From the NCBI GenBank assembly GCA_033065855.1, contig JAVXUO010000077.1, positions 434,001 through 498,000 of the forward strand: a stretch of DNA of 64,000 nucleotides. The letters are read 5' to 3'. This document shows, one piece after another, positions 31,853-60,325 of the stretch. The notes under the pieces are model-generated. The model did no database searches. It saw only the letters and a list, made by a program, of their open reading frames with translations, and was not told the origin of the DNA. The position numbers and the translations under genes were made by a program. This DNA comes from Escallonia rubra (lineage: Eukaryota > Streptophyta > Magnoliopsida > Escalloniales > Escalloniaceae). How positions within the stretch are numbered: position 1 is the first letter of the stretch; each line of letters begins with the position of its first letter.

Positions 31853-31879
31853 CACTAGAAGAAAAGCTCTATTTAGCGA

Positions 31880-32235
31880 TAGATTAGCCCGTCGGTAAAG
31901 ATCCGTAGGTAAATGTTTTTACCGACGGACAATTCTGTAAATAAAAACATTTTTCGACGGATAAAACCGATGGGTTATAGCAATGGAATATCTGTCGCTA
32001 AAATCATTTTCCAAAATTTGTATTTTCGATCGAATTTTTTAATATTTTGGAAAAATATTTAGCGACGGATTAAAATTCGTTGTTAAAATGTTATTTTAAA
32101 TTTTTTAGTCCGTCGCTAAAAACTGTCGCTGAAGTAATTAAACTTTTAGCGACGACTTTGCCAGTCGCTAAAAGTTCTATTTTAAAATTAGAGAAAGAGA
32201 CTTTTAGCGACGGCTAAAATCCGTCACTGAAAGCC
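31880..32235. repeat. CACTA-B left subterminal repeats
   Basis: Multiple direct and inverted copies of a motif close to TTTAGCGACGGATT lie here (for example CCGTCGCTAAAA). In En/Spm such motifs bind the element's own DNA-binding protein. Many copies have diverged. Confidence 0.8.
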
Positions 32236-33082
32236 TTGTTCACAAAACCCTATTTCTTTTCCTCTTTCCCCCGATGCAATCTCTTTTCTCTCTCTTCTCT
32301 CTCTATTTCAGCGACCCATCCCCTCCCCCCTTCCGGCAACATTTACCCCCGGCGATATCCCCCTCTCTTACAACAGCCCCCACTCCTCCTCCACTATGTC
32401 CCGCCATTGCCGCACCTACACTATTGGCCTCTTCCACCCCCCCACCCCCCCGGGCGACAGTCCCCACCCCTCCTCCATTGTCAGCACTGCACCACCACTA
32501 CCGCCCTCTGCTATTGCCCACCGCCCCCACTCCACAAAAGTATATACGTTTTTTATAATTACATATTAGAATATTTATGATAATTATACGTTAGATTATT
32601 TTTAATAATTACATCTTAGAATTAATACTTACATGTTAGAGATTTTTTTTACATTTATTATTATAATTACATGTTAGAAATTTTATTATTACATGTTACA
32701 TGTTAGACTTTTTATAAGTTAGAAATAACTACATGTTATTATTATTGATGTTAGATGTGATTACATGTTATAATTATTGATGTTAAATTTTTTATAATTA
32801 TTGTTATAATTATTATTGAATTTGTTATAATTTTTGTTGAATTTATTTTGGTTGTATGTAATGTATGAAATCGTTGTTAGGGTGTTACTTTGATGGTTTG
32901 TATGAGACTAAAATCTTCGTCTTTGGAATTGAGAAAAACAATGATGATCGACTGTTGAACCTTGGAGAAAAATAAATATAGGCTATATTGACAGCAGTGA
33001 CAACAATGACGATCGACTGTTTTGACTAATTAAATGTTAAAAAATAATGATTAAAATAATCAACAACTATGATCCTGATTAA
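32236..33082 (+). other. CACTA-B leader exon remnant and AT-rich intron
   Basis: The pyrimidine- and proline-codon-rich stretch at 32236-32560 matches in position and character the leader region of CACTA-A (44290-44038, reverse). The overlapping open frames are low complexity and not recognised as protein. AT-rich sequence with TTACATGTTAGA repeats follows at about 32560-32830. Confidence 0.5.
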
Positions 33083-34457
33083 GGCGCTGTTTGTTTCACG
33101 AAAAATGCTTCACGGAAAATGTTTTCCGTAAAATGCTTTCCGGAAAATAACAGACTCCTGAAAACATTTTCATGAATTTTATTTTCCGCTGTTTGGGCGA
33201 TGCAAGGAAGAATGGTAAAATTACCTATGGTCCTATACCAAAAATTAAATGTAGATTGAAAACACTATAAACACGATAAAATCATAAAAAAAACGTCAAT
33301 AAACAATACGATGACCTTGTTCAAGTTACATACATGTTCTTAATGAAAAAAATAAGTACAATAAAATGTTGTTGTTGATGAATCTTCTTTGCGTTTTGTT
33401 GCGACTTCAATGTCAACATCTAATCATGTCGAAACAACTTGTCTTTCTTTTAGCTCTAAATTACCATGTGACTTGAAAAACCACATGTTGCAATGTCTTT
33501 GCTAGCAAACAAAGCATATCTCATAGTCATGTTAATCTTTTTTTGTTCAAATATCTCATAGGCAGGACATTTATGTTCAAAAATCAAGTGTAATCAGTAA
33601 AAAAATAGTATTGCACTGCAATACAACAAGCAATGCAGCAATGCAGTTTGTGTAATCAAGCGTCATCAAGGTTAGAACAATACAACAAGACAACAATACA
33701 GTAAAAGCGAGTGTAGTCAAGTGTAAGCAATACATCAATATAATTTGTGTTGGCTTCCCTCCCATCTAGGTTTTTAGAAATTAGAAACCATTGAATATTG
33801 CACCACATGAGTACTTCAAAAACATCTTAGCCATGTAGCAGCATAAGGCACTGCTTAGAACAGCCCCAACAAAAGATACAACTGACAGGAAAAAAAAAAG
33901 AGGATGTAGAATTTCATGCACTTAACGTATCCCTCGGGGCACAAATTAGTTTCTGCCAAAGTTGAACGCATTCTTAGCAGTATAGTTTCCTTTGTTCTAC
34001 TTGCTTGGAGATTTCTCACGTTAACTATCACACGCAAGCCTTGCATTGTGAACTAGTTGATTTGATTTTCCCATCTAAGTAGTTACATAATGAAGATTGT
34101 ATATGTTAATGCAGGCCACAGAACAAGCTGATAGTAGAATATTCATGTCACGACCCGAACCCACGGGTAAGCCCGCGAGCTAGGCACGTGATAGACATGA
34201 AATTAACATATGCTGCAGCGAAAATTAAAACTTCTACAAAACTCTAATTACATTTTCATATTCGCATTTGAATACATCACTTATACTAAAACTCTTCATA
34301 ACTCCGATTGTCAACAACTAAAGCTAAACCAACAATCTAAATGTTTAGCAGCTCATTCAATGCAGTGTCCGAAGCTCCGCACCAAATTGTCTCTTCCTAT
34401 GCTCCTCACCATCACCTTACTTTCAACCTGAATGATAAGTAAGGGATGAGCTTCCAC

Positions 34458-34830
34458 CACTACAAGAAAAAAGGCTTTTAGTGACGGGGAAATCCTTTGC
34501 TAAAAGCCTAAAATCCGTCGCTAAATGTTTTAGCGACGGATTTACCGTCGCTAAAAGTCCCTCGTATAAAAACCCGTTACTAATAGTTTGGCGACGAAAT
34601 TTTCAAATTCATCGCGTAATATTTAAGTTTTTGTGACGGATTTATTTATTAATTAGCGACGGAATATCCGTCTCTAATTATATTTTAAGTATTTTAATTT
34701 ATTTTCTTCTTTGTTAAATTAGCGACGGAATAAATGTTTTAGTGACGAAATATTCCGTCGCTAAAAAACTGATAGTAGGAACACTTTTAGCGACGGATAT
34801 AATCCGTCACCAAAAGTCAAATTTTTTTTT
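34458..34830. repeat. CACTA-A 3' subterminal repeats
   Basis: Dense direct and inverted copies of TTTAGCGACGGA and its complement TCCGTCGCTAAA follow the terminus, for example near 34500, 34540, 34720 and 34785. This is the expected binding array for the element-encoded protein. Confidence 0.88.
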
Positions 34831-35188
34831 ATTTTTTTTTCTATTACCCAGGCCTGTAATAAAATTTTCATTTCTTAACAACAACGCACAATAATCAATA
34901 CACAAAGAAATATATATAATCAATCATAAAAAATGTTTATTATAAAAAAGACTCATTATGTACAAGCTGGGAACCGGATACAGCCGGTTAGGGGAAGGGA
35001 TAAGAGTACAAGTCAGACGCCGGGGGGGAAAGCTGGGACCGGGCATGAGAAGGGGCTCATCAGGGGTTGCCGAGTCCCGGATCTGGATCCTGCTAATCCG
35101 GGGTCGGCTCGGCATGTCCAGCTGCGGTACCCTGCTGATCCTGCTCCCTGATCATCCTCAACACCACCGTAGCAATGCACGCGATCTC

Positions 35189-36733
35189 TTACTCGTCCAA
35201 CGGATGCCAAGGAGCCGGTGTTTGTGGAGGGGCAGCGGGGGGTGATGACGCTCCTATCACGGCACAACCAGTCATGCTAGGCAGGCCGCGTATACGGTCT
35301 TTCAGTCGATTAACGACCTCCGACGTATCCAGCCATCGCTTCAACGCCCCAGTACTCGCACCCGTACTAGTGGACGCTGATGGCTGTCCGGACTGCTGCT
35401 CGAACCCCCTAAGCTGTTCATACGAGGCCTGCAAAAACAATGATATAAAGATATGTTATGGCATTAATTAACGCAACAAACATTGAGGATAGAAAGACAA
35501 AAAATTAACAACTTAAACAAATTGACTCACATCGATCCGCCGGGCAATATCTGAAATATAGTCGTCCACCCGGTGCGCCTCGTCCTTGTCCTTCTTCCGC
35601 ACGTGCGTCTGATTATACGTCAAAGCTACGACCTCATCCTCTTCCAGATCCGGGTGCTCGACCGCATTCAAGTGTCGGAAGATGTCGTGTGGCACCGACC
35701 CCCCCCCCCCGTGTGCGTTGGATCTCTGTTCTGTCTGTTCTCGGTCCCGCTCTTACTCTTGGCGTCCCAACCTGGATCCGCAGCCCACCGATCTATCATC
35801 GCCCCCCATACAGTCGGAGATATCCAATGTGGGGGATATCTCGTCATCTCCGTCATCGAGGCACCCTTGGGCAACATCTTCTTCGCCCGGTCCCATGCGT
35901 CGTGGAGCCATCGGCGGTAATTTTTGCCGATGTAAGCAAAGAAGGTATGCTGCCCCAGTGCCTGCTGCTCAGGCAAGTCAAACGTGAACCCCTCCTGTAA
36001 GGCATTCAATAACACAAATTAACTACAGAAAACAAACTCTAATTAAACAAATACTATCGCTGAAAAAAATACTTCACCGTACCAGCCACTCCTCCCATAG
36101 GGACTCCCTCGCAGCGGCATCCCAGTCCTTCCAGTACAGGCGTGGCTCGAAGAATCGGCCCTTCACAAGAACGCCGATCTTCGTCATCGCCTGATTCTCC
36201 AGGATCCTGCCAAATAAGTAAATAAATTAATTAATACAGTTCAAATATAAATTAACACCCCAAAAAATTAAATATAAGGCATGATATGATTTTTTTTTTT
36301 ACTTACAGGCCCTCCTGGGTGAGCGTAACTCTCTGTTTACACTGGGGGTCGATGCGTACCCCGCGTGTCGGACCACGACCTCGTCGAGATCCTACAAAAC
36401 ACAGACATTAATACACTTCAAATATACTTTAAATATAAGGCTAGCGAAAATGTACTAAACACCGTTATCAACTATACCTGAGGTAGAACCCACGGAAGAG
36501 CGAGAATCAACGCGCGTGTGGGATGAATCTGCGTCGGGCTGGGGCGACGGCTGGGGCTGGGGCGATGGTTGGGATTGGGGCTGGGGCTGGAGCTGGGGCC
36601 CCATCTGCTGTACGCGATCACTCTGTGCCTCGTCATCAGTGGGCAATGACGAGGTGGGACCCACCGGGGAGGAAACAGCTTGGCGTCCAGCCCGGCCACG
36701 AATAGCCCGTATCCTATCCATATCTGACTTCAT
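35189..36733 (-). pseudogene. Second CACTA-A gene, plant transposase of Ptta/En/Spm type (Transposase_24-like)
   Basis: Exon-like blocks are at 36733-36480, about 36140-35668, 35695-35513 and 35440-35189. The first block starts MKSDMDRIRAIRGRAGRQ and has a Gln/Pro repeat. The second has the hallmark WLHDAWDRAKK..RYPPHWI..WGAMIDRWA pattern. The third has LTYNQTHVRKKDKDEAH. In this family the protein probably binds the subterminal repeats. The exon borders are not fully resolved. A C12 run near 35700, close to a block junction, may have shifted the frame, so I list it as a pseudogene. Confidence 0.65.
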
Positions 36734-36897
36734 ATAGATAAATTACAAAGACATTAACACATTAAAACAATAATTTGGCAGAAATCATCATCGGCACTAT
36801 ATATATATATATATGAACGGAGGTGCAAAAACACATCAATATGAACCAAGTTCTAAAATGTTACTACATTTTTCCCGTGATGTTACAACATTACAAG

Positions 36898-39800
36898 TCA
36901 ATCATTTTCAGTTTGCGAATCATCTTCATCACTTTCCTCGTCGTCCTCTTCTTCGTGGGACTCGTCGTCCTCTTCATCTTCTAATTCATCCTCTTCATCA
37001 GTAGACTCGGTCACATCATCTCCAACACTTTTCACGTCTTCCGCATCATCATCTACGACTTTTTCTCCTACATGAAGTGTTGTTGGAAGAGGAAGATCAT
37101 CCTCCTCGTTGTTGACCTCAACAGGGAACAAGACGGGTGGTTGGTCTGCTTGAAAGGAATATATCTCACTGTCATATGTCACGGGCAATTTCTTGGACTT
37201 GATAGTTGTATACAAATGAGATTTGGGATTGGCGACGTCCTCCGCGTAAAAGACTTGTACAGCTTGACTAGCAAACACAAAGGGCTCGTCTGATGCAAGT
37301 CTTGACTTGACTTTGACATCTACAATCCCTTGAAAGCTAACACGGATTCATTTACTGCATGTGACATCGAACCACGTACACTTGAACATTACCAAGCGGT
37401 TTTGGGAACCCATATATGTTAGCTCAACAATCTCATCTAGCTCTCCGTAAAAGTCCATGCAATTATTGGCATAACAGATGCCGTTGACCAAGACTCCACT
37501 GTTTTGGGTTTATTTTGTTCGGTCATCATCTTTTACGTTAAACCTAAACCCGTTGATGATATAGCCTCCGTAACAGGATGTTTGTTTGTTAGGGCATTCA
37601 ACTAGTAATTTCAAGCATGAGGCCACTGGTCTATCCATTGACTGAACCTATTGTAGATGAAGGATAAATCAGTATACTAATTGGCCACAGAACTGTATAT
37701 AACACATAATATAATTTCGTTAAACAATCTTACACGCCTTTTGAACCACTGTACAAATTGTGATTTCCGATGAGATTCAAGTCCAGCGGGATCAGTGATT
37801 AAAGATTCTGTATCGAACTCACTGCAAACTAATATAGTTGACTCGCTTAACACACACTTTCAATTATGTACAGCAATGTAAGTGAATTAAGACTTTAACT
37901 TACTCAACGAATGTCGAAACTTCATCGCAATTTAGAAAGGCATATATTGTTGCAGCACTGTACTCTTCATCCGTTAGCCATCGAGTATACGTTCGGCCAA
38001 ACGGACTACCTGACTGCTTGAATATTGACAATTGCCCTTCCAAATTTGTGTTTGATCCGGGGTCATTTTGGCCTAGTTGATTTAACCTTGTACCAACATC
38101 AGGCCCGGAATATTGACTACAAAAGTTTACAAGTTCTTCCATTACGTAAGCCTTCGCAATTAAGCCCTCAACCCGAGCCTTATTGCGGACTTTTTTCTTT
38201 AAATGGAACATGAACCTAGAAGTTTAGCGAATCGAGTTAGGTGGAATATCAATGATAACAGGTGTCGCATTAACTAAATGAACAACTGTAACAATTTAAA
38301 GATTACCTCTCGAAGGGATACATCCACCGATATTGCACGGGTTCACCCATCTTAGCTTCATATGCCAAGTGAACAGGCAGATGCTCCATTGAATCAAAGA
38401 ACGAAGGTGGGAAGATTTTCTCGAGCTTGCAAATCGTCACCACAATATTCTTCTCAAGCACTTCCATGTTACTCACCCGGATCGTAGAAGAACATATATC
38501 TCGAAAAAAATGAGATAATTCAGTCAAAGTCTCGCTAACAACTTGTGGAAACAGTCCCCAGAATGCAATAGGAATGAATCTCTCCATGAATACGTGGCAG
38601 TCGTGACTCTTCATCCCTTGGAACTTGCATTCCGATACATTGCAACAACGAGATATGTTGGACGCAAACCCATCCGGAAGCTTCATATTCTTAACCCACT
38701 CATAGACCTTCTCCACTTGTTTCTTGTCTAGACAGTAAGGTGCTTTCGGAAGTATCGTCCTCCCACTGACTGTCCGAGGATGCAATTCACGGCGCACACC
38801 CAACTGTTGTAGATTCCTTCTCGCTTTAAGGTGATTTTTTGATTTGCCCTTGACATTCATCACTGTGTTGAACACATTATCAAAAATGTTCTTCTCAAAA
38901 TGCATCACATCCATGTTGTTTTGGATAACGAGCGTCCTCCAGTAGGCTAACTCCCAGAAGATACAAAATTTTCTCCAGTTGTGCTCTTTCCCGTACCCTG
39001 GAATCTTCTGATCTGGCACACCCTTGCCGTGTGGTATGTCAGTATCAAGTGCCTCCAGGTGTGAGAGAACTTCTTCACCAGATGGGTAGTCCAGTGTGAC
39101 AAGCTCACGCTCGATTGTCCCGTCAAATTTATCCTTCTGCCTTTGAAACTGATGGCCCGGTGGCAAAAGCTTACGGTGACATCTGAACCACGAGGCTTTT
39201 CTGCCGTGCTTTAACGTATGACCGGGGTTCACGCCCATACAAGCAGGGCATGCTAGCTTCCCATGTGTGCTCCGACCACACGTCATTCCCAATGCGGGGA
39301 AATCATGTATAGTCCACATCAAAGTAGCCCTCATCTGAAAATTATGTTTAAGGGATGCATCATATGTTTCGACTCCATGATTCCATAACTGTTTTAACTC
39401 ATCAATCAACGGCCTTAAATACACATCTATGTCCTTACCGGGACTCTTCGGCCCTGGATTAAGCAACGATTAGAACATGTACGGCTTCTTCATGCACATG
39501 TCTGGTGGAAGGTTGTACGGAACAATAATAACAGGCCAACAAGAGTAAGGTGTGGTAGACTGACCGAAAAGGTTGAACACATCGGTTGCCAGACCAAGTC
39601 TAACATTCCAAACTTCCTGAGCAAAGACTGGATGCCTGCGGTTAAACTCATTCCACGCCACTCCATCAGCTGGGTGTGTCAGCACATCGGCATCGTTGCT
39701 ACGAGTCTCACGGTGAGTCCTCATATGTTCAGCCATATTGGAGGAGTAGTACATTCTCTGAACCCGAGGTGTGACCGGGAAATATCGCAATATCTTCCAG

Positions 39801-40539
39801 GCAATGTTTTTCTTCTTCCCTTTGTCCAGTTTGTACCTCGAATGATCACATACTGGACACCGTGACAAATCGTTATTCTCTTTCCAGAATAATATACAAT
39901 CGTTAGTGCACGCATCTATCCGCTCATAGCTCAACCCAAGTTTCCTCATCATCTTCTTCGCGTCATAGTACGACGACTGTAGCTTTTCACTTTCAGGCAG
40001 AATTTCTTTGATTAAGGTAACAAACTCGTTAAAACCTTCTCACTCAGCCCGTGGTCTGATTTCAACTGTAATAACCTACTAACCGCAGACAGCCGTGTGT
40101 GTTTCGGAGCTCCATCCCACAACGGCTCTTCCGCAGCTCTCAACAACTCATAAAACTAATGAGCCCCCTCGTTCGGTGGTTGTGGACTGTCGTTACCCCA
40201 GTCAACATTAGCATGTCCAACATCCATAATCATATCTATGTAATTCTATCGTGCCTCATCTCTAACTTCAGTTTGACTAGTCGGGTTGGACGACAATACT
40301 ATCATTTCCCCGTGCTGCGTCCACCTTGTGTATCCACCCATAAAACCGTACCGACGAAGATGCCATTTTACTTCAATTATTTTTTTCCAGTGCAACAACT
40401 CACATCTACCGCACGGACACCTTATCTTATCAAGGTCAACATGTGCAGGATGCGCATAAGCGAAGTCGAGAAATTCGTCAACGCGACACTCAAAATCTTC
40501 AGCATTCTTCCTTTTCATCCAACTTCGATCGACCGACAT
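36898..40539 (-). pseudogene. CACTA-A tnp2-type transposase with TAD, DUF4218 and DUF4216 regions, damaged
   Basis: The start MSVDRSWMKRK (ATG 40537-40539) opens the transposase-associated domain, with CPCGRC at about 40430. The tnp2 catalytic core follows at 39952-38303, with CPVCDHSRYK and IHDFPALGMTCGRSTHGKLACP. It continues with HLAYEAKMGEPVQYRWMYPFER, then the DUF4218 part (MFHLKKKVRNKARVEG, 38211 on). Last comes the DUF4216 part (FVFASQAVQVFYAEDV, 37278 on) with a strongly acidic C-terminal tail ending at 36898. An in-frame TAA lies at 39467-39469 in the core. Further stops and at least one frame change lie at 39953-40245. It probably cannot make full-length transposase. Confidence 0.85.
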
Positions 40540-41239
40540 GACGACTGAATTATCGTACTGTATACCACCTTCAATTATGACCAATCATTAGGCATTGCTG
40601 ATGTAAATATGAATGCATGAATGTTACAACATGTCTATATATTTCCTCTCCACTCTCTAACAGGTAGTGGTCATATCCCATCCAGAAAAGCACATGTTTA
40701 TAAAACAGTGAATAACTCATGCTTAGTCCCATGTCTGCGAAAAATTCGGCAGCATCTCCCCACATTTCTCCAAGTACACGACATCGATTAGGAGTTCTAA
40801 CATTCATCCAACCTTGCCTTGCAAGGTTTGACGCATGTTAGAACACCAGATTTGTATGCACCCGGAGAAACACACGAGAACGTGTCCAAATATCCACGAC
40901 ATAGAACACAAAGCATGAGTCAAAACATTGTTTTATAAACAATTAGCTTTTCCAAATTGTCCAAACTGGACATCCAAAGGCTAATTACAAAGCATTACTT
41001 TGTAATGAGTACTTTTGAACGGGAACTAAGGGTTTTTATGCATGCATGCGTTCAGAAATTGATAACGCAAGAATCTTTCCGAAATATCAAAACTGCAGAA
41101 ATATCGTTACATATGTTACCAATTCCACATTAAATAGAATTTGTTGGCAACGAGTTGAACCATCTCGTTGCCAATGGACTTCTCAAAACAACAACTAATA
41201 TAAAGAAGACAGGGTTTGTAAACAACGAGTAATTGAACC

Positions 41240-41800
41240 ATCTCTGGGCAATATGGAGTAATTATGGGATGTACAAGGGCTAATTAGGGCTACCTGGGTA
41301 ATTAGGGTTAATTACGAGTATTAATTATACTTAATTAGGGTTGATTAGGACTAATTAGGGTTATTTAGTCCTAATTAGGGTTTAATTGTGCCGAGTAGTG
41401 CTGATTAGTCCTAATTAGGGCTAATTAGGCTTAATTGGGTTATGTTAGAGCTAATTATTGTTAATGAGGGCTAGTTTCGGATAATTATAGTTAATTAGGG
41501 TTGATTAGGACTAATTAGGGTTATTTAGTCCTAATTAGGGTTTAATTGTGCCGAGTAGTGTTGATTAGTCCTAATTAGCGCTAATTAGGCTTAATTGGGT
41601 TATGTTAGTACAAATTACGACTAATTAGGCTAACTATAATCAATATGCGCGGTTCGTTTGGGCTAATTTGGGGTAATTACAGCTAATTAGATTTTCATTA
41701 GGTTCTTAGGGTTAATTAAAACTAATTAGGCTCGTTAGAGCTAATTAGGGTTAATTGATTTATTAAAATATTGTTAATCATGACTAATTAGGGCTAATTA
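41240..41800. repeat. TTAGGG-like degenerate repeat tract in CACTA-A
   Basis: CTAATTAGGG and GGTTAATTAGGG units repeat over about 550 bp. A longer block of about 110 bp is duplicated with a 160-bp period (TTGATTAGGACTAATTAGGG at 41341 and 41501). The tract lies upstream of the tnp2-like gene and corresponds in position to the CCCTAAA tract of CACTA-B at 52166-52420. Confidence 0.8.
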
Positions 41801-41893
41801 TAGCCAGTGCTGGAGCCACGATGAGATTCCAGGAGGTGCATGCTAAAAATGTCGCGTTAACCTAAATTTAATGCACAGTCAACAATCTCAATT

Positions 41894-42098
41894 CTGACAC
41901 CTCATATAGGGTGTCGATATGGTGTCCGATAGGTGTCTGACACCTCCGGACACGTGTTCGACACATACGGACACATGTCCGACGCCTCCGGACACTTGTC
42001 CGACACGCACCTCCGGACACATCGGCATACGTTGATTTGTTTTTTAAATGTCGGACACCGTCGATCAGACGTGATGTCCGTGCGCTAACTAACAGGTA
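41894..42098. mobile_element. Possible small hAT MITE related to the element at 15928-16935
   Basis: ACACCTCATATAGGGTGTCG..TATGGTGTCCGA closely resembles the left end of the 15928 element (ACACCTCATCTAGGTTGAGG..TATGGTGTCCGA). The right side has GATGTCCGTGC, like CATGTCCGTGC there. The flanks TCTCAATT and TCTCAATC match at 7 of 8 positions. The terminal inverted repeats are poor, so the exact borders are doubtful. Confidence 0.4.
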
Positions 42099-42240
42099 TC
42101 TCAATCCAATTGGGTCCCATCCTCCGTCAACAATCTCAATTCTCAAATGCTCAATGCAATAAAAATTAACAAAAATCACACATTCAATCCAATTGGGCGC
42201 ATCCTCCGTCAATAATCTCAATATCTCAAATGCTCAATGC

Positions 42241-42870
42241 ACAATTAACAATCTAAAATCATCAATTAACAACCTAAAATCATCAATTAATAATCGCAAT
42301 TACTTCAAATGCACAGCTAATAACCTAAAATCATCAATTAACAACCTAAAATCATCGATCAATAATCACAATTCTCAAATGCACAATTAACAACCTAAAA
42401 TTATCAAACAAATGATCAATGTTCAAATGGAAAAAAATTGTTCAAAATGCACATATCCGATGCGCTTGAATTATTTCAATTTAGAGTTCGATTCTATCAG
42501 GGCATTCAATTTAGGGTTCAATTACTTTAATTTAGGGTTCGATTCGATTAGGGCATTCAATTTAGGATTTAATTATGGTTCAATTACTTCAATTTAGGGT
42601 TCAATTAGTTCAATTTAGGGTTTGGTTGATTTGGGGCATTTAATTTAGGGTTCAATTAGTTCAATTTAGGGTTCGGTTGGATTAGGGCATTCAATTTAGG
42701 GTTCAATTAGTTTAATTTAGGGTTCGATTCGATTAGGGCATTCAATTTAGGGTTTAATTAGGGTTCAATTACATCAATTTAGGGTTCAATTAGGGGGTTC
42801 TATTGATTCAATTTAGGGTTCGGTTGATTTGGAGCATTCAATTTAGGGTTCAATTATTTCAATTTAAGTG
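42241..42870. repeat. Two short-period tandem tracts in the CACTA-A 5' region
   Basis: From 42241 to about 42420, units like CAACCTAAAATCATCAATTAA repeat. From about 42470 to 42870, units like CAATTTAGGGTTCAATTAG repeat, with TTTAGGG at the heart of each. Both lie between the leader and the tnp2-like gene. They are probably intronic or promoter-like spacer sequence of the transposon. Confidence 0.75.
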
Positions 42871-44037
42871 TCCCCACTATTCCTTGAATTTCATATTAGC
42901 AGTCTCTCTTGTAACTTGTCTAATCTAATCAACTCAGGAAACCAAGAATCACCCATGAACTGCTTACTCTATAGCAACCTAATTACCTAAATCATCAGCC
43001 ATTAATTGCTTACCCTTTAGCAATGCTAAAAGCTGAAGTATAATAAAAGATATAGCCCAGCATACAACCTTTAAAGAGTATTTCATGAACATACTTCTTC
43101 TATTTTATTTCATATTTTCAACACTCGCATGTATCTCAATTCAAGTTCAGTATCATTGAGCCGTAGAAAGTTTAGGATACTATTATTTAGACTTTTTAAT
43201 CTCATTCTTATAAGCAGAGAAAAGTTATGTTTTAACTTTTCCAGTCTTTGGGTGCTCATCCTTTTAAGCACAGAAAAGTTTTGTTTGGACTTTTCCAGCT
43301 TTGCAGTTTGCACCCATGTGATATTTACCTCCGCTTTGTGTCTTACACTCTTTTTAGGTTAGGGTCTGATTGGGCTGGTGGTCAATCTACCACCCTCCAC
43401 ACCCTCGATTGGTAGAGTACAAGATCTGAAGGTGATGAAATTGTTGATCAATACCTACGTCATTCTTAGAATCTATGGCGTTAAGGCATTGGTTTGTGAC
43501 TGAAGGTATTTCTTTTTTTTACTTCGAAGTACAAGTAAGAAGGCAAGAATCTCAGCTTTGTGTCTTACACACTTGCTATGTTTTGCCCCAACTGTGGTTT
43601 TGTGCTTTAGTTGAGGGTCCGGGGTACTGGGGTGTCGAGTACCTGATGGAGCTGGGCACGAGTGTAGTAGAAATACATCTTAGTGATTAAGGACAAAGAA
43701 AATCTTAGATTGTCAAGATAATGTAGTAGAAATGAATGGAGGAATATGGTATCTTCGTATCTGATTTTATGATTAGTGTACTCCCCTTATAATTAGTTTA
43801 CTACATAAAGTTGGACTAGACAACAATCAATATAGTATTCTACATATTATGCATCATCAGCATCTCAAGGTGTTTGGCATATCCAAGCTAAAATTACAAT
43901 CCAAAAATGAAATCAAATCCAAATTGCACACTGAAAAAAACATGGATGAATATCAAAATCATACCCGACAGTAGTCACCATACGAAACTATATACATATT
44001 CAAAATCAAAATTGTTGGAAGAAATCATACCTTCTAA
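42871..44037. other. CACTA-A 5' spacer without recognised gene
   Basis: AT-rich sequence lies between the repeat tracts and the leader. A near-palindromic duplication around 43180-43290 repeats the phrase AGCA/CAGAGAAAAGTT..TTTT(T/G)GACTTTTCCAG. No coding region is recognised. Confidence 0.5.
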
Positions 44038-44289
44038 GTGAGGCTGACGGGTAATTATTGCCGGCGGCAGTGGAGGGCGGCGGTGTTGGTGGCGCGACGG
44101 CAGTGGAGGTGGATATATTGGTCACGCGGCGTCAGGGGGAGGATGAGGTGTCGCCGGAGGTGGGGCACCGTGGAGGTGAGAACGACGGTGAGAACGGGGG
44201 CAGTGGAGGTGGGGCACCGTGGGATCGCCGGCGGTGAGAACTCAGAGCATTCCAAGAGAGAAACGGGGAGAGAGAAAAACCAGATTTGG

Positions 44290-44635
44290 GGGACTTAATA
44301 AAGACTTTTCAGCGACGGAATAAAACCGTCGCTAAAAGTCCGTCGGTGAAGGTCGTACTTTTATCGACGGAATTTTAGCGACGGTGATTTTCTGTCGCTT
44401 AATTTTTTTTATTAAACCCTCGGAAATAAAAAATTCTAAAAAAAGTTTAACGACGAAAGTTCAGTCGCTAAAAGACCGCCGACAAAATTTTGTCGCCAAA
44501 AAAATGTTTTTTGGTGTCAGATTTCGTCGCTAATAGTCTTTAACGACGGAATTATCCGTCAGTGAAAGCTCATTTAGCGGCGGAAACACTTCCGTCGCTG
44601 AAAATCCGTCGCAAAAAACGTATTTTCTTGTAGTG
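44290..44635. repeat. CACTA-A 5' subterminal repeats
   Basis: Repeated TTTAGCGACGG and CCGTCGCTAAAA motifs run up to the TTCTTGTAGTG terminus. They mirror the array at 34458-34830. The promoter for the element's minus-strand genes should lie here or just inside. Confidence 0.85.
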
Positions 44636-46449
44636 CACGTGCTCAGTAAGTAACCGATGATTCAACTAGGTGGACCAAAGCATGCAGAAAATAACTCACT
44701 TTTTATTATAGCCACATTAAAAACAACTAAAATTATAAAGTTGGTGATCATCGGGTAAAACAAAATAAGGTACATGAAACCAAAAATTGAAGTATAAAAT
44801 CATTAGCACAAAACTCATGACAACCAGTCAATTCCAACATTAGCTTAAACGATATGCTGCGGTCAGCGTACAGGCCCCACTGACTAGGGCCCGAAATCCC
44901 TCCTACATCCGGGATAAATAATATGTGGACGCAAGGGCGAACCACAAGCAACAGTACTGTGCATCAACGTACAAGCCTCGTTGACGAGTGCCCGAAATCC
45001 AACTTTCCCCCGTTGGATATGGGGCACAACAATCGAATAAACCAAAACCCCATTTGGGTTCATCGTAAACGAAATCACTCATCAATTGATTGTCAACCAT
45101 CCTCACACCCTTTCAATAATTATCAAGATTTTCAATATTCACAATAACATCAAATACCAAACATTTCAAATCCGAGTTCCATTTCAATTTCTAAGCAAAA
45201 CATCATTTACATGCTGGCCTGGTTTTTCTTTAACGAGAAATAAACCACTAAAAGCTTTTTTGGTAAATTAAGCCAGAGCAGTTAAACATAATTAAAGCAG
45301 TCAATGTAGATAAATACCACTTTTAATCGTAGAAAACATATACATTATATATAAAAATACTAGTTGAATCAAAGGGTCACTTACTTAATGCTACGCATTC
45401 CTCATATCAAAATCTCCGAAGCGACGATCATGCTGTTACATCCGGCTCAAGAACCTTCAATGCCATTCTTTTCCTCTTTATATCCCTATACGTGCTTTAA
45501 CCCGAAAGCGTCATCGGTCAACACCATATCCCTTTTCTACCGAAACCTAAATAACAAACCACACGGATGTCATTCATTGCCGCTCGAGTACGCCTAAGTA
45601 TTAGGTTTCTCTTAAGTGCGTAAAATTTACCCAACCGCCCCTCGACTTTTGTAAAATTACCTATTCGCTCCCGATGCCTAACGTACCATTATCCACCTAG
45701 ATATAACCTAAAAGAGTCTTTTTAGACCACTTGTGGGTTTTTCGGACAAGAACGGTTGTTCTGGGAATTTTTCGCTCGGAACCCTAAACTGCTCATTAAA
45801 TTGAGCGTTAATGCTCATGTTCCAAATATATATCAAACGGTACTGGAATGCCACGAAATTTTAGAAACTTAAGCCTCTCGGTACTTTTAGGTCACTATAA
45901 AATTATAGGCTAAAAATAATTCTGTTTACTATGTTAAATAATTCAAAAACCTGTTTTAATAAATAAAATTATTCGAGACATTTCCCATGTCCAGAAAAAT
46001 CCCAGAAAATTCCACGTTGAAGGTTTCACAAAAATAAGGAAGTTTCAGTTTTCTACTTTGTCTCTAATCAGAAGAGGTCTTTAGAAATAATTTAATAAAC
46101 TATTGTAATAGTGAAGCGTTACGCTATATCCGAGCGAGTGTTACGCTGCTAATTACGCTAAAAATAGCAAACGACTTTCAAAACTTTTGAAACTCTGGAA
46201 TATACTCCATCATAGCTACATAAGACTATTTTAAAGGTATCAAAATTTAATAACTTAATATAGTATTTTAAAATACATCGAAATCTCTTGTTCGGATAAA
46301 ATTAGTTAGCATGCTTCCCAACCTCAGAAAAATCTGAAATTTTTCCTGTGTGTATTTCTTGCAAAAATAATATAAATTACTCTTTTGCGTTTTGTCCAAA
46401 TAAGTTCCTAGATATATCAAAAAAAAAAAATTAGGAAAGGAACTGATTA

Positions 46450-49750
<3,301 letters not shown>

Positions 49751-50864
49751 CCCCCCCCCCCCCCATTATGTTCATCATCTTCAGCAAAACACACCTTCAC
49801 ATGAGCACCCCTTCTCCTATCTTTCCCCTTGTACCATTTCCCCCACTTCATAGTACTAGCACCTCACATGCGAACTTCTTTTTAACTTTTCCTTGTAACC
49901 TAATTCCATTGCAAAATACCTACAATCTAATTAACAGGGATATGAGATCGGACATCTGATCTACATGCCAGTAATCCAAAAAAAAAAAAGATCTACTTCA
50001 CACTCTCATACCATTCACCTCATTCAGTTTCTTCCACACATGATCTTAGTACTAAACCAATCACCATATTCTGCAATAGTATAATTGGGTAACAAATACA
50101 AGAAACAAGAAATCAACTTTCATGGACCACACTGCCTCCCTAATACCAACATATTTAAAACAACCACACCCTTCTTTTACCCAAAGATTAAAACACCTAA
50201 CATCACCTAAAATATAATATATAACTACTAAATGTATCAACCACATGTATTCACCAAAATAGAAACCCATCTACCTTCTGTCTTTAGTTAGCTAGAACTC
50301 CCCACGATTATGCCTTGCCTCAATGACTAAGAACCATAAACTCAAAGAACCTGGACATCGGTAAGCTAATGTGAGACGTGCATGAAGACAAGGTCTGTGC
50401 AAATAAGCTAGATTAAGATCTAAGTGACTAGGATACGAAGAAGATTTCTCCTGGAAAATTTCTACACTGTACCTTGAAATCTAGAAACAACCTTTAGGGC
50501 CGGAAACATACTTTGGCAAGGAAATCATATCCAACCAAAAAGATTAAAAACAAACCAGGTAAAAGGCTTACCTCTATAATCAATTCAACCTCCTCTTCTC
50601 TGTATCTCTTTCATTCTTCCGTAACCGAAAAAGCATAAATTGCTCTTCTCTATTGTAATCGAAATCTCACTTAAAAGTTAGCTTAAATCTCTCCAATTTT
50701 TCCTCTTTTGTTCTCTCTCTTTCCAAATTTCAAGAGTTGACAAATTTTAATTTAATTTTTTTTACTATTATGTTTTTTTTATAAATAAAATCAGATTTCT
50801 TGAAATCTTTTATTTATATAATAGTTCCCACTTTAATTTTATATTTATATCTAACCCTGCTTTA

Positions 50865-51000
50865 CTAACCGTCGCTAAAAGTTACCGATAAAAATATTGC
50901 TTATATACATTGCTAGATATTTTGCATAGCAATGGTCGCTAAAATTGCTAATATAATATCGCCACTAATGATGGAGTATGAAAATTGTCGCTAAACATTT
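50865..51000. repeat. Short GTCGCTAAA-bearing segment near the LTR edge
   Basis: ACCGTCGCTAAAAG, TGGTCGCTAAAAT and TTGTCGCTAAACA occur within about 130 bp just inside the LTR end. They resemble CACTA subterminal motifs but lack a CACTA terminus. They may be native to the LTR or the relic of a small CACTA derivative. Confidence 0.35.
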
Positions 51001-51047
51001 TAAATTAACCTGATAGAAAGTACCAAGGTTCAGGGTATTACAATTCA

Positions 51048-52074
51048 ACTGTGGAAACTCTCACAGAATTTCAGTAGTAATGATAAACAAAAATGAAAAC
51101 AATGAACCAAAATTCACTGGAAAACTCACTAGCAAAATTCAGTGGATTCACTGGAAAACAAAAATGAAAAAGGGAAATCACTAATAACACATTAATCATA
51201 ACTGGTTTAACATACAAATGCTCAACCAAATTCGATTATTGCAAAGGATTTATTAAAAGATGAAAAGCCTGAAAATTATTTCACTCTCTATGTGTAGGTT
51301 CTTTATGAAAAAGCAAAGCCTTCATGTGTTAATTTAACCCAAAAACCATTTTCATTGATAATCTCAGTAAGAACAAGCTCAAAGATGAATCACTGATAAG
51401 GAGCATGCTAGCATAAGCACCTCAAATATTCTGTAATGAGTGATACATATATCCTTTGTTAAACAACCAGAAAGGAAAACAACTTTGCTGCAACTAAATC
51501 CCATTAAAGGCAGAATATTGACTGAGTTGTCAATGATATAGTTGCATCAAAGTGGCTCTAACCCACAAGAGAATCAAATAAAATCCAAACCTCATAAGTC
51601 AATGTTTGTTTAAGAAAGAACAAGAACAAAGATCAAAATACAAAATAGCTAACAATAAACAGCGATTAATGGATAGAAAACAATATACCATGGATTATAA
51701 TGCTCAGATCTGGGTTAGAAGGGTCGAATATGCTCAGATCTGTGAAAAAGTGAGGCTCTTGTGGTGATCGAAGAAGACGAAGGCAAAATAAATAGGAGGA
51801 GAGGCATATTAAATATAACAAGAGACAGAGAGAGACAGACAGACAGCCGACAAACCTGATAGAATGGGGAGGCAGCGGCGATGGAGGCAGGGATGGCTGG
51901 TGCACCAGTGCGTAGGCAACACGGGGGAGGCAGAGATGGAGTCGGGCAAAAGATCTTGTATTCAACATATGCGAAATGTGGGAAGGGAGAAGTTACGGGA
52001 AAATGACTTCCCCTTTTCATTTTGGTAAACGTTTTTCCTAGAATTTAGTCTAGATTTTACATGAATGTAAAACA
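51048..52074. other. Right arm of the TIR element that hosts the solo LTR
   Basis: This is non-coding and AT-rich, with a purine-rich stretch at about 51800-51850 (GAGACAGA repeats). Open frames on the minus strand at 51666-52020 are low complexity and carry no family motif. Confidence 0.45.
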
Positions 52075-52165
52075 TTTTCCGTAAACAGTTTTCCAATAAA
52101 CACACCAAACACCAGAAAATACGAAAAATATTTCACGGAAAACATTTTCCGTGAAACAAATCCTA

Positions 52166-52420
52166 AATTCAAACCCTAAACCATAAATCCCAAACCCTAA
52201 ACCGTAAATTCCAAACCCTAAACCGTAAATCTAAACCCTAAATCCTATGCCCTAAATCCAAACCCTAAACCTAAGCCCTAATTAAACCCTAAATACAACC
52301 CTAACTCGAATTACTATATCGTAAACACTATCCCGCCTAAACCCTAAACCTACCCGTAAATATGTACATCCCGAAACCAAACTTTAAACTAAACCCTAAC
52401 CTTCAACTATTGCAATATCA
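52166..52420. repeat. CCCTAAA telomere-like tract in CACTA-B
   Basis: About 20 degenerate copies of CCCTAAA (plant telomere-type) occur, for example CAAACCCTAAACCGTAAA. The tract is interstitial, is flanked by transposon sequence, and sits in the same relative place as the TTAGGG-like tracts of CACTA-A. Confidence 0.85.
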
Positions 52421-53984: not shown

Positions 53985-55017
53985 ATTTCCTGTTTGATGT
54001 TCTGAAAAATATTAACTCACGAAATAAATTTTTTGATAGGCCCTCCTCCTTTTATCCAGACTTGGGTATCATTTTTTTAAAAAAGTGAGGAAAAATATAT
54101 GTATTTTTTATATATAGAGAACAAAGAAGAAATAGTGCCGCTTTGGTGCCTCCATGTCTGGAATGTGAATCATGCAGGAACTTAAGAAGCTAATGAGAGC
54201 AAAAGTTCAGGAGCATATTGCATTACAGTGGTCCATCAGCCCAGGATTTGCATCCCAATGAAAGGAACAATAAAAAATAAAATATCAAGCTCCACAAACC
54301 AAGATTCTAAAAGTTCTCCACACTAGACTATTCGTATGTTCTTCCTTGTCACTCTAAACAGTTTGATCATGGTAGAAATACACAATATTTGGGCTTGTTG
54401 TACCATCAAGCACACAATGGTTACATCAGTAGATGTAGAAGACCAATAAGTTGTAATGGGATAATCCATTAATTTATCTGCATATACTTTTTCAAATCAG
54501 CATCAAGATCTTTTTTATCTATCTTCTCACCCTGGCCTCTTCCACAGCCCCTTCCAAATCCACGACCTCTACCGCCACCACGTGACCTTCCATATCCACT
54601 GCCCCTCCCTGGTCCACTGTTCCAAAGTTAATAATTAAAAAAAAGAAAGTGAGACATCAATTCAAAAACATAACGCTGTGAGACAAAATCTAAAATTTTA
54701 AAACAAGTGGGGCAGGGCCAAATTAAGGGCCAAAGGGCCAGGCTAGATTAGGGCCAAAACTGGGCCAGAACCGGACCGGGCCCAGGCCAGCCCTAAAAAA
54801 ATGAGCTGATTTTGGGCAAGCCCGTTTTTAGGGCCTGACCCAGACCTTTTTAGGGCCAGGCCAGATAAAATCCTCGAACAATTAGGCATGGCCTTAGCCC
54901 TGGCCCTATGGTTTAGGGTCGTCACTGTTCATCCATATGCTAGGCCAGCCATGGCCAATTTAGCGTAGGGACGGGTCGGGCCAACCCGCGGGCAGCCTGG
55001 CCCTTTTGACATATCTA
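53985..55017. other. Foreign block inside the CACTA-B transposase, replacing about 150 bp
   Basis: Alignment by eye to CACTA-A shows homology ending at GCTGAACATA (53984) and resuming at TTTAATCCTTTCGG (about 55018). About 150 bp of the CACTA-A equivalent are missing. The block holds the ALY-like last exon with its 3' flank, then a GGCCAGGCC-rich stretch (54700-55017) whose right edge, CCTTTTGACATATCTAG, looks like a hAT terminus. No matching left terminus was found. Confidence 0.55.
54469..54616 (-). pseudogene. Captured last exon of an ALY/REF-like mRNA-export gene
   Basis: On the minus strand an acceptor-like GGAACAG precedes an open stretch ending at TAA (54469-54471). It encodes an RGG-rich tail (GRGSGYGRSRGGGRGRGFGR) followed by KKDLDADLKKYMQIN. 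The RGG tail plus LDADL.KY is the C-terminal signature of ALY/THO4-type or CHTOP-like (FoP domain) export adaptors. Downstream sequence looks like its 3' UTR. Retained intron sequence at the acceptor indicates capture at DNA level, not retroposition. The rest of the gene is absent, so it is a fragment. ALY is the more likely source; a related FoP-domain protein is possible. Confidence 0.6.
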
Positions 55018-57863: not shown

Positions 57864-59582
57864 ATGGATAGATTACGGGTTACTCGTGGTCGCGGTGGAC
57901 ATCGAGCTGCGTCCACGCCGGTGGCTGGGCCATTAGCATTGCTTGCTGATGACAAGGCACATAGCATGAGCATCTAACAGGCCCGCCCGCAGCCACAGCC
58001 TCGGCTCAGGCTAAGCCCTCCCAACCGCACACATGTTCACCTTCTTCAGTGGGTTCGACGACATCAGATATAATTGATATTAGAATTTCAGCAATGTCTA
58101 CCTTACATTTAATTTATATTTGAGCTAATTTAATGCTAGTATTTTGTAGGTTCTTGTTGAGGCCATAGACCGACAGGTAGGGTGCGCATTGATCCCCAGC
58201 GGAAACGACGAGTTACTCTGACCAAGGATGACCAGTAAGTAAAAAATCACATAATGCACTTGACAGTTTAATGATTCCAATAATTATTAATGTTCACTTA
58301 TTTAATGATATTAATGTTATTTTTTATCAGGATCCTGGAAAAAGCCGGTGAATACGAAGATTGACCTTCTTGTGAAAGGCCGCTTTGTTGAGCTACTGCT
58401 ATATTGGAAGGACTGGAATACCAGGAGGAGGACGGCCCTGTGGGAGAAGTGATCGGTATTACTTTGAATCAGCTAATAATTGTTTAATTAGTACTGTTCC
58501 ATGCAATTAATCATACTGATTGTGTAATTTGTTGCATACCAGGAGGGGTTTGACTTTAAGTCGCCTGAGTATCGGGCATTGGGGAAGATGGTTTTTTTTT
58601 TTTTGCGTACATAGCCAAAAATTACAAGCGATGTCTACACAATGCACGGGACTGGGCCAGGAAGTTGGTGCCGAAGAGTGCATCAACGGAGGAATAGAAA
58701 GGGTATCCCCCTAATTGGATCTCACCATTTGTATGGAGGCAGATGGTTGATAGGTGGATGACTGATCCATCTTGGGAGGTGAAGAGTAGGAGTGGGAACG
58801 CTAACCAAAAAGGATAAGGATCCTATGCGCACGGGAGGGTCGATGCCGTACGACATCATCCGATATAAGAATGCGGCTGAGAACCGGTACCTGGAGAAGG
58901 ATGAGGTGTGTGCTTTGACATACACGATGACGCACATCAGAAAAGTAGATAAAGATGATGCACATTGGGCGGGGGAGTTCATTTCATAGGTTGCTCGACA
59001 TATCGATGTAAGTTAGAAATTAATTTGTTTTTAGTTAAAATTTTGATAATGTCTTCAATGTCTACTGCCTTAATATCTTCGACGCCAAATCACTGTTTTG
59101 TAGGCCTCATATGAACATATTATGGGGTCTAGGCAGCAGTCTGGTCAGTCATCAACGTCCATGATTACGAGTACGAGTACTAGGGGATTGAAAGGTGGCT
59201 AGATACACCGAAAGTTATTGATAGTAGGAAAGAACATGTGCGCGGCCTTCCTAGGTGACTGCACGTGCCATGATGGGAGCATCCTCACCCCCTACCGCCC
59301 TTCCATAGACACAGACACAGACACCGACTGCGGAGTGACATTACACCTGGATGATGTTCGTCGCATTGCTCAAGAGGTGGTCAGGATGATCAGGGAGGAT
59401 GGGGTACAAAACATTTACAATTATGAAGTCAATCTTATATTTGAACACAATATATAAGTCGTAACGAGAGTGGGTGCGTGATTTTAATGTAGGACATTAT
59501 TATTTCCGAGACCAAGCCGGATCCGCATGACACCCCCATGGACGAGGAGCAGGGTCCGGATGCCGGTCTCGACGAGCCTTGA
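57864..59582 (+). pseudogene. CACTA-B second gene remnant (Transposase_24-like)
   Basis: It is collinear with CACTA-A 36733-35189. The start MDRLRVTRGRGGHRA is at 57864. A block at 58720-58985 carries WMTDPSWEVKSRSGN- and LTYTMTHIRKVDKDDAHW-like segments, and a C-terminal part runs to TGA at 59580-59582. Frame changes and altered exon borders are evident, and an A/T-run length change at about 58590-58604 may add to the damage. Not functional. Confidence 0.65.
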
Positions 59583-59884
59583 GGCATGCCCTTCTTCCTC
59601 GCCCCTGCTCTCCTAAAATTGTCCTCCTCTATTTTTATTCCCCTCTCGCTCTTATCTCTGCCCCCTGTTATAATTGGTTCACAATTGGACAATATTGTAT
59701 ATATTTTGAGTTCGATTAGAATATAATTTGAATATATATTTTGTGTTTTAGGATGAAATAATTACTGATGGATCAGTAATTATCAATTATTTAACCCTAT
59801 TGTGGATTGAGAATTGTTTGTGATTTGTATAATGTGATTGTATTTGGATTATAGGAGGCGGATTTGGGTATAATTTTTTTTTTT

Positions 59885-60318
59885 ACTTTTAGTGACGATT
59901 TTTTTTCCGTCACTAAAAATCTACAAGGATAGAGATAGGAAAACCTTTTAGCGACGGAGACAGACCTTTAGCGGTAGAAAATCCGTCGCTAAAAAGGCAA
60001 GGGTCTTTAGAGACTGATCTTTAGCAATGGACTAAAGTTTTTTCTGTCACGAAAAGTTATTCCAAAATATTAATTTTTGAAATAAAATAAAATAAAATAT
60101 GAAAATTATCTTTAGCTGCGGAATGTCCGTCGCTAAAAGCTGGACTTTTTTGGTGACGGATTTGAGAATTCTGTCGCCAAACTTTTAGCAACGGAATTTT
60201 CGGTTACGTACTTTTAGTGACAAGTTTATCGATGGGGTGTATGTCGCTAATGTCTTTGGCGACGGATAATGGACTTTTAGCAACGAAACTGTCCCTCGCT
60301 AAAAGTCCTTTTTGGTGT
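59885..60318. repeat. CACTA-B right subterminal repeats
   Basis: TTTAGCGACGGA, CCGTCGCTAAAA and diverged variants (TTTAGTGACG, TTTAGCAACG) repeat up to the right terminus. They are more diverged than those of CACTA-A, in line with greater age. Confidence 0.85.
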
Positions 60319-60325
60319 TGTGAAG

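What the first reader, a model, noticed from the sequence alone, without database searches (positions are those of the whole stretch)
31853..60325. Nested stack of transposons whose insertion order can be read from target duplications
CACTA-B (TSD AAG) contains a TIR element. That contains a solo gypsy LTR (TSD ATTCA), which contains CACTA-A (TSD CAC) and an organelle-like block. Removing each insert in turn rejoins the host element: LTR to LTR, CACTA-B leader to its telomere-like tract, and 31849 to 60326. One CACTA family therefore inserted here twice, once at the outside and once deep inside, giving an internal clock. Three of the four transposon levels have matching target duplications; the TIR-element level does not.
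Basis: partly seen in the sequence, partly recalled or inferred. Interest (0 to 1): 0.72.

Follow-up and report, generated by a model that had tools for sequence, protein, structure and literature searches.

The report
Transposon nest holding shredded mitochondrial DNA
A plant chromosome carries transposons stacked inside one another, which is ordinary, but the innermost insert is a 3-kilobase patchwork of dozens of mitochondrial DNA scraps of about 37 bases each, joined end to end, which is not ordinary and may record how mitochondrial DNA is cut up and captured by the nucleus.

Summary
The nest is real. The three stated target duplications (AAG, ATTCA, CAC) are exact. The fourth level, said to have none, shows TAA and PIF/Harbinger-like ends. 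Each level has insert-free paralogues in the same genome (least exact at the TIR element), and the outer host is itself a repeat. Identity to relatives broadly falls outward (inner CACTA 95%, outer CACTA 71-83%), which fits the order but is no clock. Such nests are ordinary.

The surprise is the 'organelle-like block'. It is a mosaic: 60 placed pieces (37.2 +/- 6.0 bp, 31 plus/29 minus) cover 2182 of 3100 bp. 51 were assigned to sites scattered over the 795-kb mitochondrial contig; 9 matched nuclear copies best. 25 of 38 close junctions overlap by 1 bp or less. A paralogous LTR lacks the block. Simulated random cutting never gave such uniform sizes. Changes relative to the mitochondrion are mostly C-to-T, concentrated at CG/CHG sites, so the block decayed in methylated nuclear DNA and is unlikely to be an assembly artefact. 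It is an extreme variant of the known 'complex numt'. I infer that mitochondrial DNA cut to near-uniform duplexes was ligated into a break. The cutter is unknown; recurrence is untested.

The parts
31850..31852 (.). AAG target duplication, left copy, of CACTA-B
   Evidence: Read directly; paralogues C934 and C975 read CAGCAAG|TGTG with one AAG
31853..60322 (+). CACTA-B, outer CACTA element, degenerate, interrupted by 33083-52163
   Evidence: CACTA end and AAG duplication; aligns to CACTA-A over several kb; leader and tract joined in 5 relatives
60323..60325 (.). AAG target duplication, right copy
33080..33082 (.). TAA target duplication, left copy, of the TIR element
33083..52163 (.). PIF/Harbinger-like non-autonomous TIR element (about 2.2 kb without its insert)
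   Evidence: Inverted ends (26 bp at 96%, 43 columns at 81%); TAA flanks in the window and in copies C1899 and C2157, which share a right flank
52164..52166 (.). TAA target duplication, right copy
34141..34145 (.). ATTCA target duplication, left copy, of the solo LTR
34146..51042 (+). solo LTR (about 3.36 kb without its two inserts), TG...CA
   Evidence: ends and duplication; paralogous LTRs C2849, C940, C2412
51043..51047 (.). ATTCA target duplication, right copy
34455..34457 (.). CAC target duplication, left copy, of CACTA-A
34458..44635 (-). CACTA-A, inner CACTA element with tnp2 transposase region
   Evidence: CACTACAAGAAAA termini; Transposase_21, DUF4218, DUF4216, Transpos_assoc; 95% relatives; empty site C2412
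44636..44638 (.). CAC target duplication, right copy
46486..49834 (.). whole insertion absent from the paralogous LTR in C2849; its outermost 46486-46593 and 49694-49834 are not assigned to any source
   Evidence: C2849 passes from 46485 to 49840 with 22 bp between
46594..49693 (.). mosaic: 60 placed pieces of 23-63 bp (mean 37.2), 2182 of 3100 bp covered; 51 assigned to the mitochondrial contig, 9 to a nuclear copy as best match (3 of these 9 also match the mitochondrial contig less well)
46552..46565 (+). C14 tract near the left end of the insertion
   Evidence: the empty site C2849 has a C13 tract at the insertion point
49751..49764 (+). C14 tract near the right end of the insertion
53985..55017 (.). 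extra about 1 kb in CACTA-B relative to CACTA-A, with a gene fragment (FoP_duplication, minus strand 54470-54627)

Best explanation
A plant repeat was hit by CACTA-B. CACTA-B was hit by a PIF/Harbinger-like non-autonomous element, and that by an LTR retrotransposon which collapsed to a solo LTR. Two later events struck the LTR. One was CACTA-A. The other was repair of a double-strand break at or near a poly-C tract using mitochondrial DNA. For the second event, mitochondrial DNA had been degraded to short, near-uniform duplexes of about 37 bp drawn from all over the mitochondrial genome. An estimated 84 of them (60 placed, the rest inferred from the unmapped length) were ligated end to end in random order and orientation by non-homologous end joining, making a 3.3-kb filler. 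The filler then decayed as methylated nuclear DNA. Shown: nest order, the mosaic, piece sizes, junction overlaps, a paralogous site without it, C-to-T decay. Inferred: ligation of free duplexes rather than template switching, one event, the poly-C tract as break site, degradation as the source of the pieces.
For: Nest. Mosaic: 60 pieces, 37.2 +/- 6.0 bp, 31 plus/29 minus, 2182 of 3100 bp. Sources spread over C3028: 53 positions (the 51 assigned plus two second-best matches), KS p 0.70 for uniformity, with one cluster of 5 in 3.2 kb, p 0.003, window chosen after looking. C3028 is mitochondrial: cox2, nad6 and an nad-type domain. Close junctions, 38 of 59 neighbouring pairs: 17 overlap 0 bp and 4 overlap 1 bp. 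Poisson cutting at five mean sizes, 2000 runs each, covered at most 64% with pieces of 28-63 bp, against about 70% here (2163 of 3100 without the one 23-bp piece). Control: 17 matches to the held fifth of the mitochondrial contig lie in the block, 1 in the other 60,646 bp of the window, 0 in the reversed block, 0 in three LTR loci. Decay: 36 differences in 1875 bp, C>T/G>A 19 against T>C/A>G 3; 13 of 19 at CG or CHG sites, p 0.002. Site without it: C2849.
Against: 912 bp inside the mosaic lies in unmapped gaps longer than 3 bp, and both outer edges of the insertion are unassigned. 6 of the 60 pieces have no match found on C3028, and 3 more match a nuclear copy better. 13 of 38 close junctions overlap by 2 bp or more against about 6.3 expected for blunt joins, so some microhomology was used. 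Differences per piece (30, 12, 6, 0, 3 pieces with 0, 1, 2, 3, 4) include more pieces with four than Poisson expects (3 against 0.3), so some sources may be wrong or ages mixed. The site without the block is a paralogue (80% and 93.6% identity), not the same locus. Detection needs about 30 bp outside the 200 kb held, so shorter pieces could be hidden. No reads or second assembly were available. The recurrence search was uninformative.
Confidence: 0.72

Rival explanations
1. The mosaic was written by a polymerase: during repair the growing end jumped between mitochondrial templates every 37 bases or so (polymerase-theta-type or microhomology-mediated replication).
For: Excess of overlaps of 2 bp or more (13 of 38 against about 6.3 expected); two overlaps of 7 and 11 bp.
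Against: 17 of 38 close junctions have no overlap, 4 have 1 bp and 4 have gaps of 1-2 bp; some 60 successive jumps would all have to land on mitochondrial DNA scattered over 795 kb.
Confidence: 0.15
2. Assembly or library artefact: short mitochondrial fragments ligated into a chimeric read and built into the contig.
For: The only full-length match among the 40 candidates scored is this locus itself; 30 of the 51 pieces assigned to C3028 are identical to it; no reads available.
Against: Directional C-to-T change (19 against 3) concentrated at CG/CHG sites is the mark of long residence in methylated nuclear DNA; a paralogue shows the site without the block.
Confidence: 0.07
3. An ordinary large mitochondrial insertion that was later chopped and shuffled by nuclear rearrangement.
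For: Post-insertion fragmentation of organelle inserts is described (PMC7037861, passages).
Against: Sources span the whole mitochondrial contig, neighbours come from unrelated places by inspection, the 38 close junctions hold at most 2 bp of filler, and sizes are uniform.
Confidence: 0.04
4. The pieces are reverse-transcribed mitochondrial RNA fragments, with C-to-T from RNA editing.
For: C-to-T is the main change.
Against: Sources are spread evenly over the 795-kb contig, both strands are equal (31/29), and the changes prefer CG/CHG sites. Gene content around the sources was not annotated.
Confidence: 0.02

Closest known systems
Complex (rearranged) numts and mitochondrial-plastid mosaics of plants (Portugez et al. 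2018, PMC6215612: abstract, passages, Background and Methods seen)
   Same: Several organelle pieces from different places and orientations joined in the nucleus, with blunt or 1-7 bp microhomology junctions; up to 100 segments reported in inserts of 3-92 kb (that paper citing Noutsos et al., second hand).
   Different: Here the pieces average 37 bp with narrow spread. The worked maize example seen in that paper joins four fragments into 3,573 bp; a plastid survey, PMC3989485, used only hits of 100 bp or more (passage), which would miss this.
Mitochondrial DNA capture at breaks in yeast (Nuc1/EndoG preprint, PMC10802722, passages seen)
   Same: Short mitochondrial fragments caught by end joining.
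   Different: There inserts were 22-492 bp and the minimal size for efficient insertion was 44-46 bp, linked to Ku binding; here most pieces are shorter and dozens sit in one place.
UV-induced mitochondrial fragments of set length (Waneka et al. 2024, PMC11228841: abstract, passages and one Results section seen)
   Same: Arabidopsis mitochondrial DNA yields short fragments of characteristic length, including a cluster at 36-39 nt.
   Different: Those are damage-bearing single-stranded oligonucleotides with peaks every 4 nt (28 nt dominant); here duplex pieces, and TT at the reported position is not significantly enriched.
Nested plant transposons (e.g. PMC6911290, PMC2672092; search listing only)
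   Same: Elements inserted into elements, order read from interruption and target duplications.
   Different: Nothing in kind; mixed orders (CACTA, PIF/Harbinger-like, LTR, CACTA) are expected in plants (recalled).

Membership tests
CACTA (En/Spm) DNA transposon | CACTA terminal inverted repeats | tested here: met
   CACTA-A CACTACAAGAAAA at both ends; CACTA-B left end CACTAGAAGAAAA, right end degenerate ...TTGTG
CACTA (En/Spm) DNA transposon | 3-bp target duplication | tested here: met
   CAC and AAG, with one copy at empty paralogues
CACTA (En/Spm) DNA transposon | tnp2-type transposase | tested here: met
   Transposase_21 2e-42, DUF4218, DUF4216, Transpos_assoc in CACTA-A; the two CACTA-B ORFs scanned had no Pfam match, but CACTA-B aligns to A at 77-78%
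PIF/Harbinger-like (Tourist-type) | TAA/TTA target duplication and GGSCC..GTTTGTTT-type ends (motif recalled) | tested here: met
   TAA in the window and in 2 of 3 copies read, these two sharing a right flank; the third uninformative
PIF/Harbinger-like (Tourist-type) | Harbinger transposase of an autonomous partner | not tested
   The 2.2-kb element shows no convincing ORF; no partner was sought
Ty3/gypsy LTR retrotransposon (solo LTR) | TG...CA ends and 5-bp target duplication | tested here: met
   empty site
Ty3/gypsy LTR retrotransposon (solo LTR) | gypsy-order internal domains | not tested
Complex numt joined by end joining | multiple pieces from different mitochondrial places and orientations | tested here: met
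   60 pieces, 51 assigned to C3028, both strands
Complex numt joined by end joining | blunt or short-microhomology junctions | tested here: met
   Overlaps 0-4 bp in 32 of 38 close junctions; 4 have 1-2 bp gaps, 2 have 7 and 11 bp; 21 of 59 neighbouring pairs have larger unmapped gaps and could not be judged
Complex numt joined by end joining | absence at the ancestral site | tested here: inconclusive
   Paralogous LTR in C2849 lacks it; no orthologous site available

The most novel reading that the evidence does not exclude
The block is a fossil of a size-ruled mitochondrial DNA degradation pathway in plants. Some machinery (nucleoid packaging plus a nuclease, or a damage-triggered excision system) cuts mitochondrial DNA genome-wide into duplexes of about 37 bp, and germ-line end joining can string dozens of them into one nuclear insertion. 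Such micro-fragment arrays would be a hidden class of organelle-derived nuclear DNA that hit-length cut-offs discard.
Probability: 0.4. Interest if true: 0.78.

Novelty: new variant of a known kind. Interest (0 to 1): 0.58.

Why it matters
How plants degrade mitochondrial DNA, and what size the products have, is open. UV-induced Arabidopsis fragments of set length (including 36-39 nt) were reported in 2024 with no known pathway (PMC11228841). An insertion that preserves 60 short pieces with readable ends gives direct data on cut length, cut-site preference and joining mode. It also shows a class of nuclear organelle DNA that a 100-bp hit cut-off cannot see. The transposon nest itself is ordinary; its use here is to place the event in time (after the LTR) and to supply a paralogous site without the insert.

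Tried and rejected
Rejected: 'no target duplication at the TIR level' (TAA found). 'A-B divergence is a clock' (it dates lineage split). A separate third CACTA around the block, suspected from GTCGCTAAA-like motifs near 46465 and 50862-50998: the C2849 LTR carries 49840-51043 contiguously at 93.6%, so this is part of that LTR lineage. Assembly artefact and RNA origin: see rivals.

Led nowhere: a 3-kb mitochondrial query for other mosaics scored 40 of 192 candidates and did not even list the known 40-bp match in this window, so it says nothing on recurrence. Five nuclear loci that share a piece with the block were compared with the mitochondrial sequence held (about a fifth of the contig): L009, L010 and L016 (C2721, C267, C3178) gave no match, L014 (C2482) one of 96 bp, L015 (C2078) only the shared 43 bp; none looks like a second mosaic. 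A TT test prompted by the UV paper was not significant at the stated position 7 (p 0.18 and 0.11 against two nulls) nor for the best position overall (0.49 and 0.28); wider sums chosen after looking gave 0.059 and 0.022 (starts at 7-8) and 0.016 and 0.002 (starts at 7-9) and are not relied on. No cut-site motif beyond a mild excess of A just outside the ends. No length periodicity was evident by eye. Rfam and tRNA scans of the window: none.

Rows dropped before counts: where several sources matched one piece the best was kept; in three of the 9 pieces so given to nuclear copies a C3028 match was second best (359964, 450001, 109393). The 9 were left out of the mutation counts.
Full report
WHAT WAS CLAIMED AND WHAT HOLDS. 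The window is 64 kb of contig C1005 of an unnamed 566-Mb genome, plant by its content. The claimed nest is there. CACTA-B runs 31853-60322 between AAG copies, the solo LTR 34146-51042 between ATTCA copies, and CACTA-A 34458-44635 on the minus strand between CAC copies. CACTA-A encodes a tnp2-type transposase region (Transposase_21 2e-42, with DUF4218, DUF4216 and Transpos_assoc). The two CACTA elements align at 78.0% over 1402, 76.8% over 2736 and 67.9% over 1313 columns.

THE FOURTH LEVEL HAS A TARGET DUPLICATION. The TIR element runs 33083-52163 between TAA copies at 33080-33082 and 52164-52166. Its ends share an inverted stretch of 26 bp at 96%; by eye the right tip has lost about three bases. 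Of three sister copies read at their ends, C1899 and C2157 also lie between TAA. They share one right flank, so they are not independent. For C901 the left end was not captured and the right flank is not TAA. TAA with GTTTGTTT-type ends fits PIF/Harbinger (recalled), and the 2.2-kb element shows no convincing ORF.

EMPTY SITES. For the LTR, 7 of 15 non-self rows cross the rejoined junction, and C901 and C1419 read through it. For CACTA-A, the LTR copy in C2412 carries one CAC. For the TIR element, 5 of 96 non-self rows cross from CACTA-B leader to telomere-like tract by 50 bp or more on both sides (40 of 457 candidates scored). The two relatives read there carry other sequence right of the junction, so the two parts belong to one element although the exact point is less clean. 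For the outer site, 12 of 49 non-self rows cross by 10 bp or more (40 of 84 candidates scored), and C934 and C975 read with one AAG at 70-72% identity. The outer host is therefore itself an old repeat.

ORDER VERSUS CLOCK. Identity of the longest rows to relatives broadly falls outward: CACTA-A leader 95% over 1.3 kb in three near-complete copies; LTR 93.6% and 80% in its two parts to C2849; TIR element 83% for the best full-length row; CACTA-B leader and tract 71-77% for the three longest rows, 83% for one leader row. Shorter rows blur this: the TIR element reaches 92% over about 300 bp and the CACTA-B tract 87-92% over about 90-105 bp. The trend agrees with the nest order. It is not a clock: a DNA transposon's divergence from a sister dates their common ancestor, and the stretches differ in kind.

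THE ORGANELLE BLOCK IS A MOSAIC. Searching the genome with 46520-49770 returned, besides itself, 41 short matches (40 of 100 candidates scored). 24 lie on contig C3028, scattered, on both strands and often abutting in the query; 17 lie on other contigs. Sub-block searches (all candidates scored in 20-23, 40 of 73 in 19) and short fetched stretches gave 60 placed pieces: mean 37.2 bp, SD 6.0, range 23-63, 31 plus and 29 minus, covering 2182 of 3100 bp. 51 pieces were assigned to C3028 and 9 to nuclear copies. Of these 9, three also match C3028 less well and six have no C3028 match found, perhaps because parts of C3028 are masked (32.5 of the 200 kb held). C3028 is mitochondrial: COX2 8.9e-61, nad6 3.3e-29 and an nad-type antiporter domain 5.8e-48. 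Against the 167.5 kb of it held unmasked, the block gives 17 matches, the reversed block 0, the other 60,646 bp of the window 1, and three LTR loci 0.

SIZE, SOURCE AND JOINTS. Random (Poisson) cutting at five mean sizes, 2000 runs each, covered at most 64% with pieces of 28-63 bp; here it is about 70% (2163 of 3100 bp without the one 23-bp piece). 16 of the 21 unmapped gaps longer than 3 bp are 25-37 or 58-72 bp, that is one or two pieces long, so the total is perhaps 84 pieces (inference). Sources are uniform along C3028 by KS test (p 0.70, 53 positions: the 51 plus two second-best matches). One cluster has five in 3.2 kb (p 0.003), or four in 1.9 kb without the one found only locally (p 0.013); these windows were chosen after looking. 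Of 59 neighbouring pairs, 38 are close enough to judge. Overlaps are 0 bp in 17, 1 in 4, 2 in 8, 3 in 1, 4 in 2, 7 in 1 and 11 in 1, and 4 have gaps of 1-2 bp. Blunt joining of random pieces predicts a mean of 0.68; the observed mean is 1.13. So joining is mostly blunt with some microhomology, as in end joining.

IT IS REAL AND OLD. Against C3028, 36 of 1875 bp differ and 30 of 51 pieces are identical. C>T or G>A makes 19 changes against 3 in reverse (p 0.0001). 13 of the 19 are at CG or CHG sites (odds ratio 4.4, p 0.002). This is decay of methylated nuclear DNA and argues against an assembly artefact or RNA editing. Three pieces with four differences each, where Poisson expects 0.3, may have the wrong source; without them 24 of 1753 bp differ. 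The LTR copy in C2849 passes from 46485 to 49840 with only 22 bp between, including a C13 tract. The window has C14 tracts near both edges of the insertion. I infer a break at or near a poly-C tract.

MECHANISM. Best supported: ligation of many short duplexes, made by degradation of mitochondrial DNA, into one break. Two reports frame it. In yeast, the minimal size for efficient capture is 44-46 bp, linked to Ku binding (PMC10802722, a preprint, passages); most pieces here are shorter, which is odd for direct capture. In Arabidopsis, UV yields mitochondrial fragments with peaks at 32, 28, 24, 20 and 16 nt and a cluster at 36-39 nt, by an unknown route (PMC11228841, abstract, passages and one Results section). 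The size match is suggestive only: those are single-stranded, and TT at the reported position is not significantly enriched here (p 0.18 and 0.11; sums over wider positions chosen after looking are lower).

NOVELTY. Complex numts joined by end joining are known, and up to 100 segments in 3-92 kb inserts have been reported (PMC6215612 citing Noutsos et al.). Passages of PMC7037861, PMC9630118, PMC4806543 and PMC4632043 describe rearranged, concatenated or fragmented inserts but nothing this finely cut in what I saw. Eight of my ten paper searches bore on organelle inserts (the others, 62 and 65, on shattered transgene DNA and nested transposons). Their listings showed no array of near-uniform pieces this short. 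The library holds open-licence papers only, so this is weak evidence of absence. I rate the block a new variant of a known kind and the transposon nest ordinary.

Noticed in passing
window 54470-54627 (minus), within about 53985-55017: CACTA-B carries about 1 kb absent from CACTA-A, including a fragment matching FoP_duplication (2.2e-7), like the C-terminus of an ALY/THO4-type protein (name recalled): a captured or inserted host gene fragment.
   Followed up: partly
window 54710-55015: A stretch dense in GGGCC/GGCCA words beside the gene fragment, of unknown origin.
   Followed up: no
window 52167-52420 and contigs C802, C806, C2649, C762, C1431: The telomere-like CCCTAAA-type tract of CACTA-B matches closely spaced, overlapping places in several other contigs, which may be degenerate telomere-type arrays or CACTA-derived satellites.
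   Followed up: no
window 41312-42866: Short-period tandem repeats (TAATTAGGG-like, TTTAGGGTTCAATT-like) in the CACTA-A leader.
   Followed up: no
LTR parts 45532-46485 and 49840-51042 against L039 (C2849): The two parts of the LTR differ in identity to the same paralogue (80% and 93.6%), suggesting a recombinant LTR or gene conversion.
   Followed up: no
L025:7130-8212 (C3028:67130-68212): The mitochondrial contig carries a DNA_pol_B_2 (organellar/viral type) ORF, as in linear mitochondrial plasmids (recalled).
   Followed up: no
window 43400-43426: A lone 27-bp exact match to the mitochondrial contig inside CACTA-A.
   Followed up: no
L088 and L090 (C1899 and C2157): Two copies of the TIR element share the same right flank but have different left flanks, so one locus is a partial duplication or chimera.
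   Followed up: no
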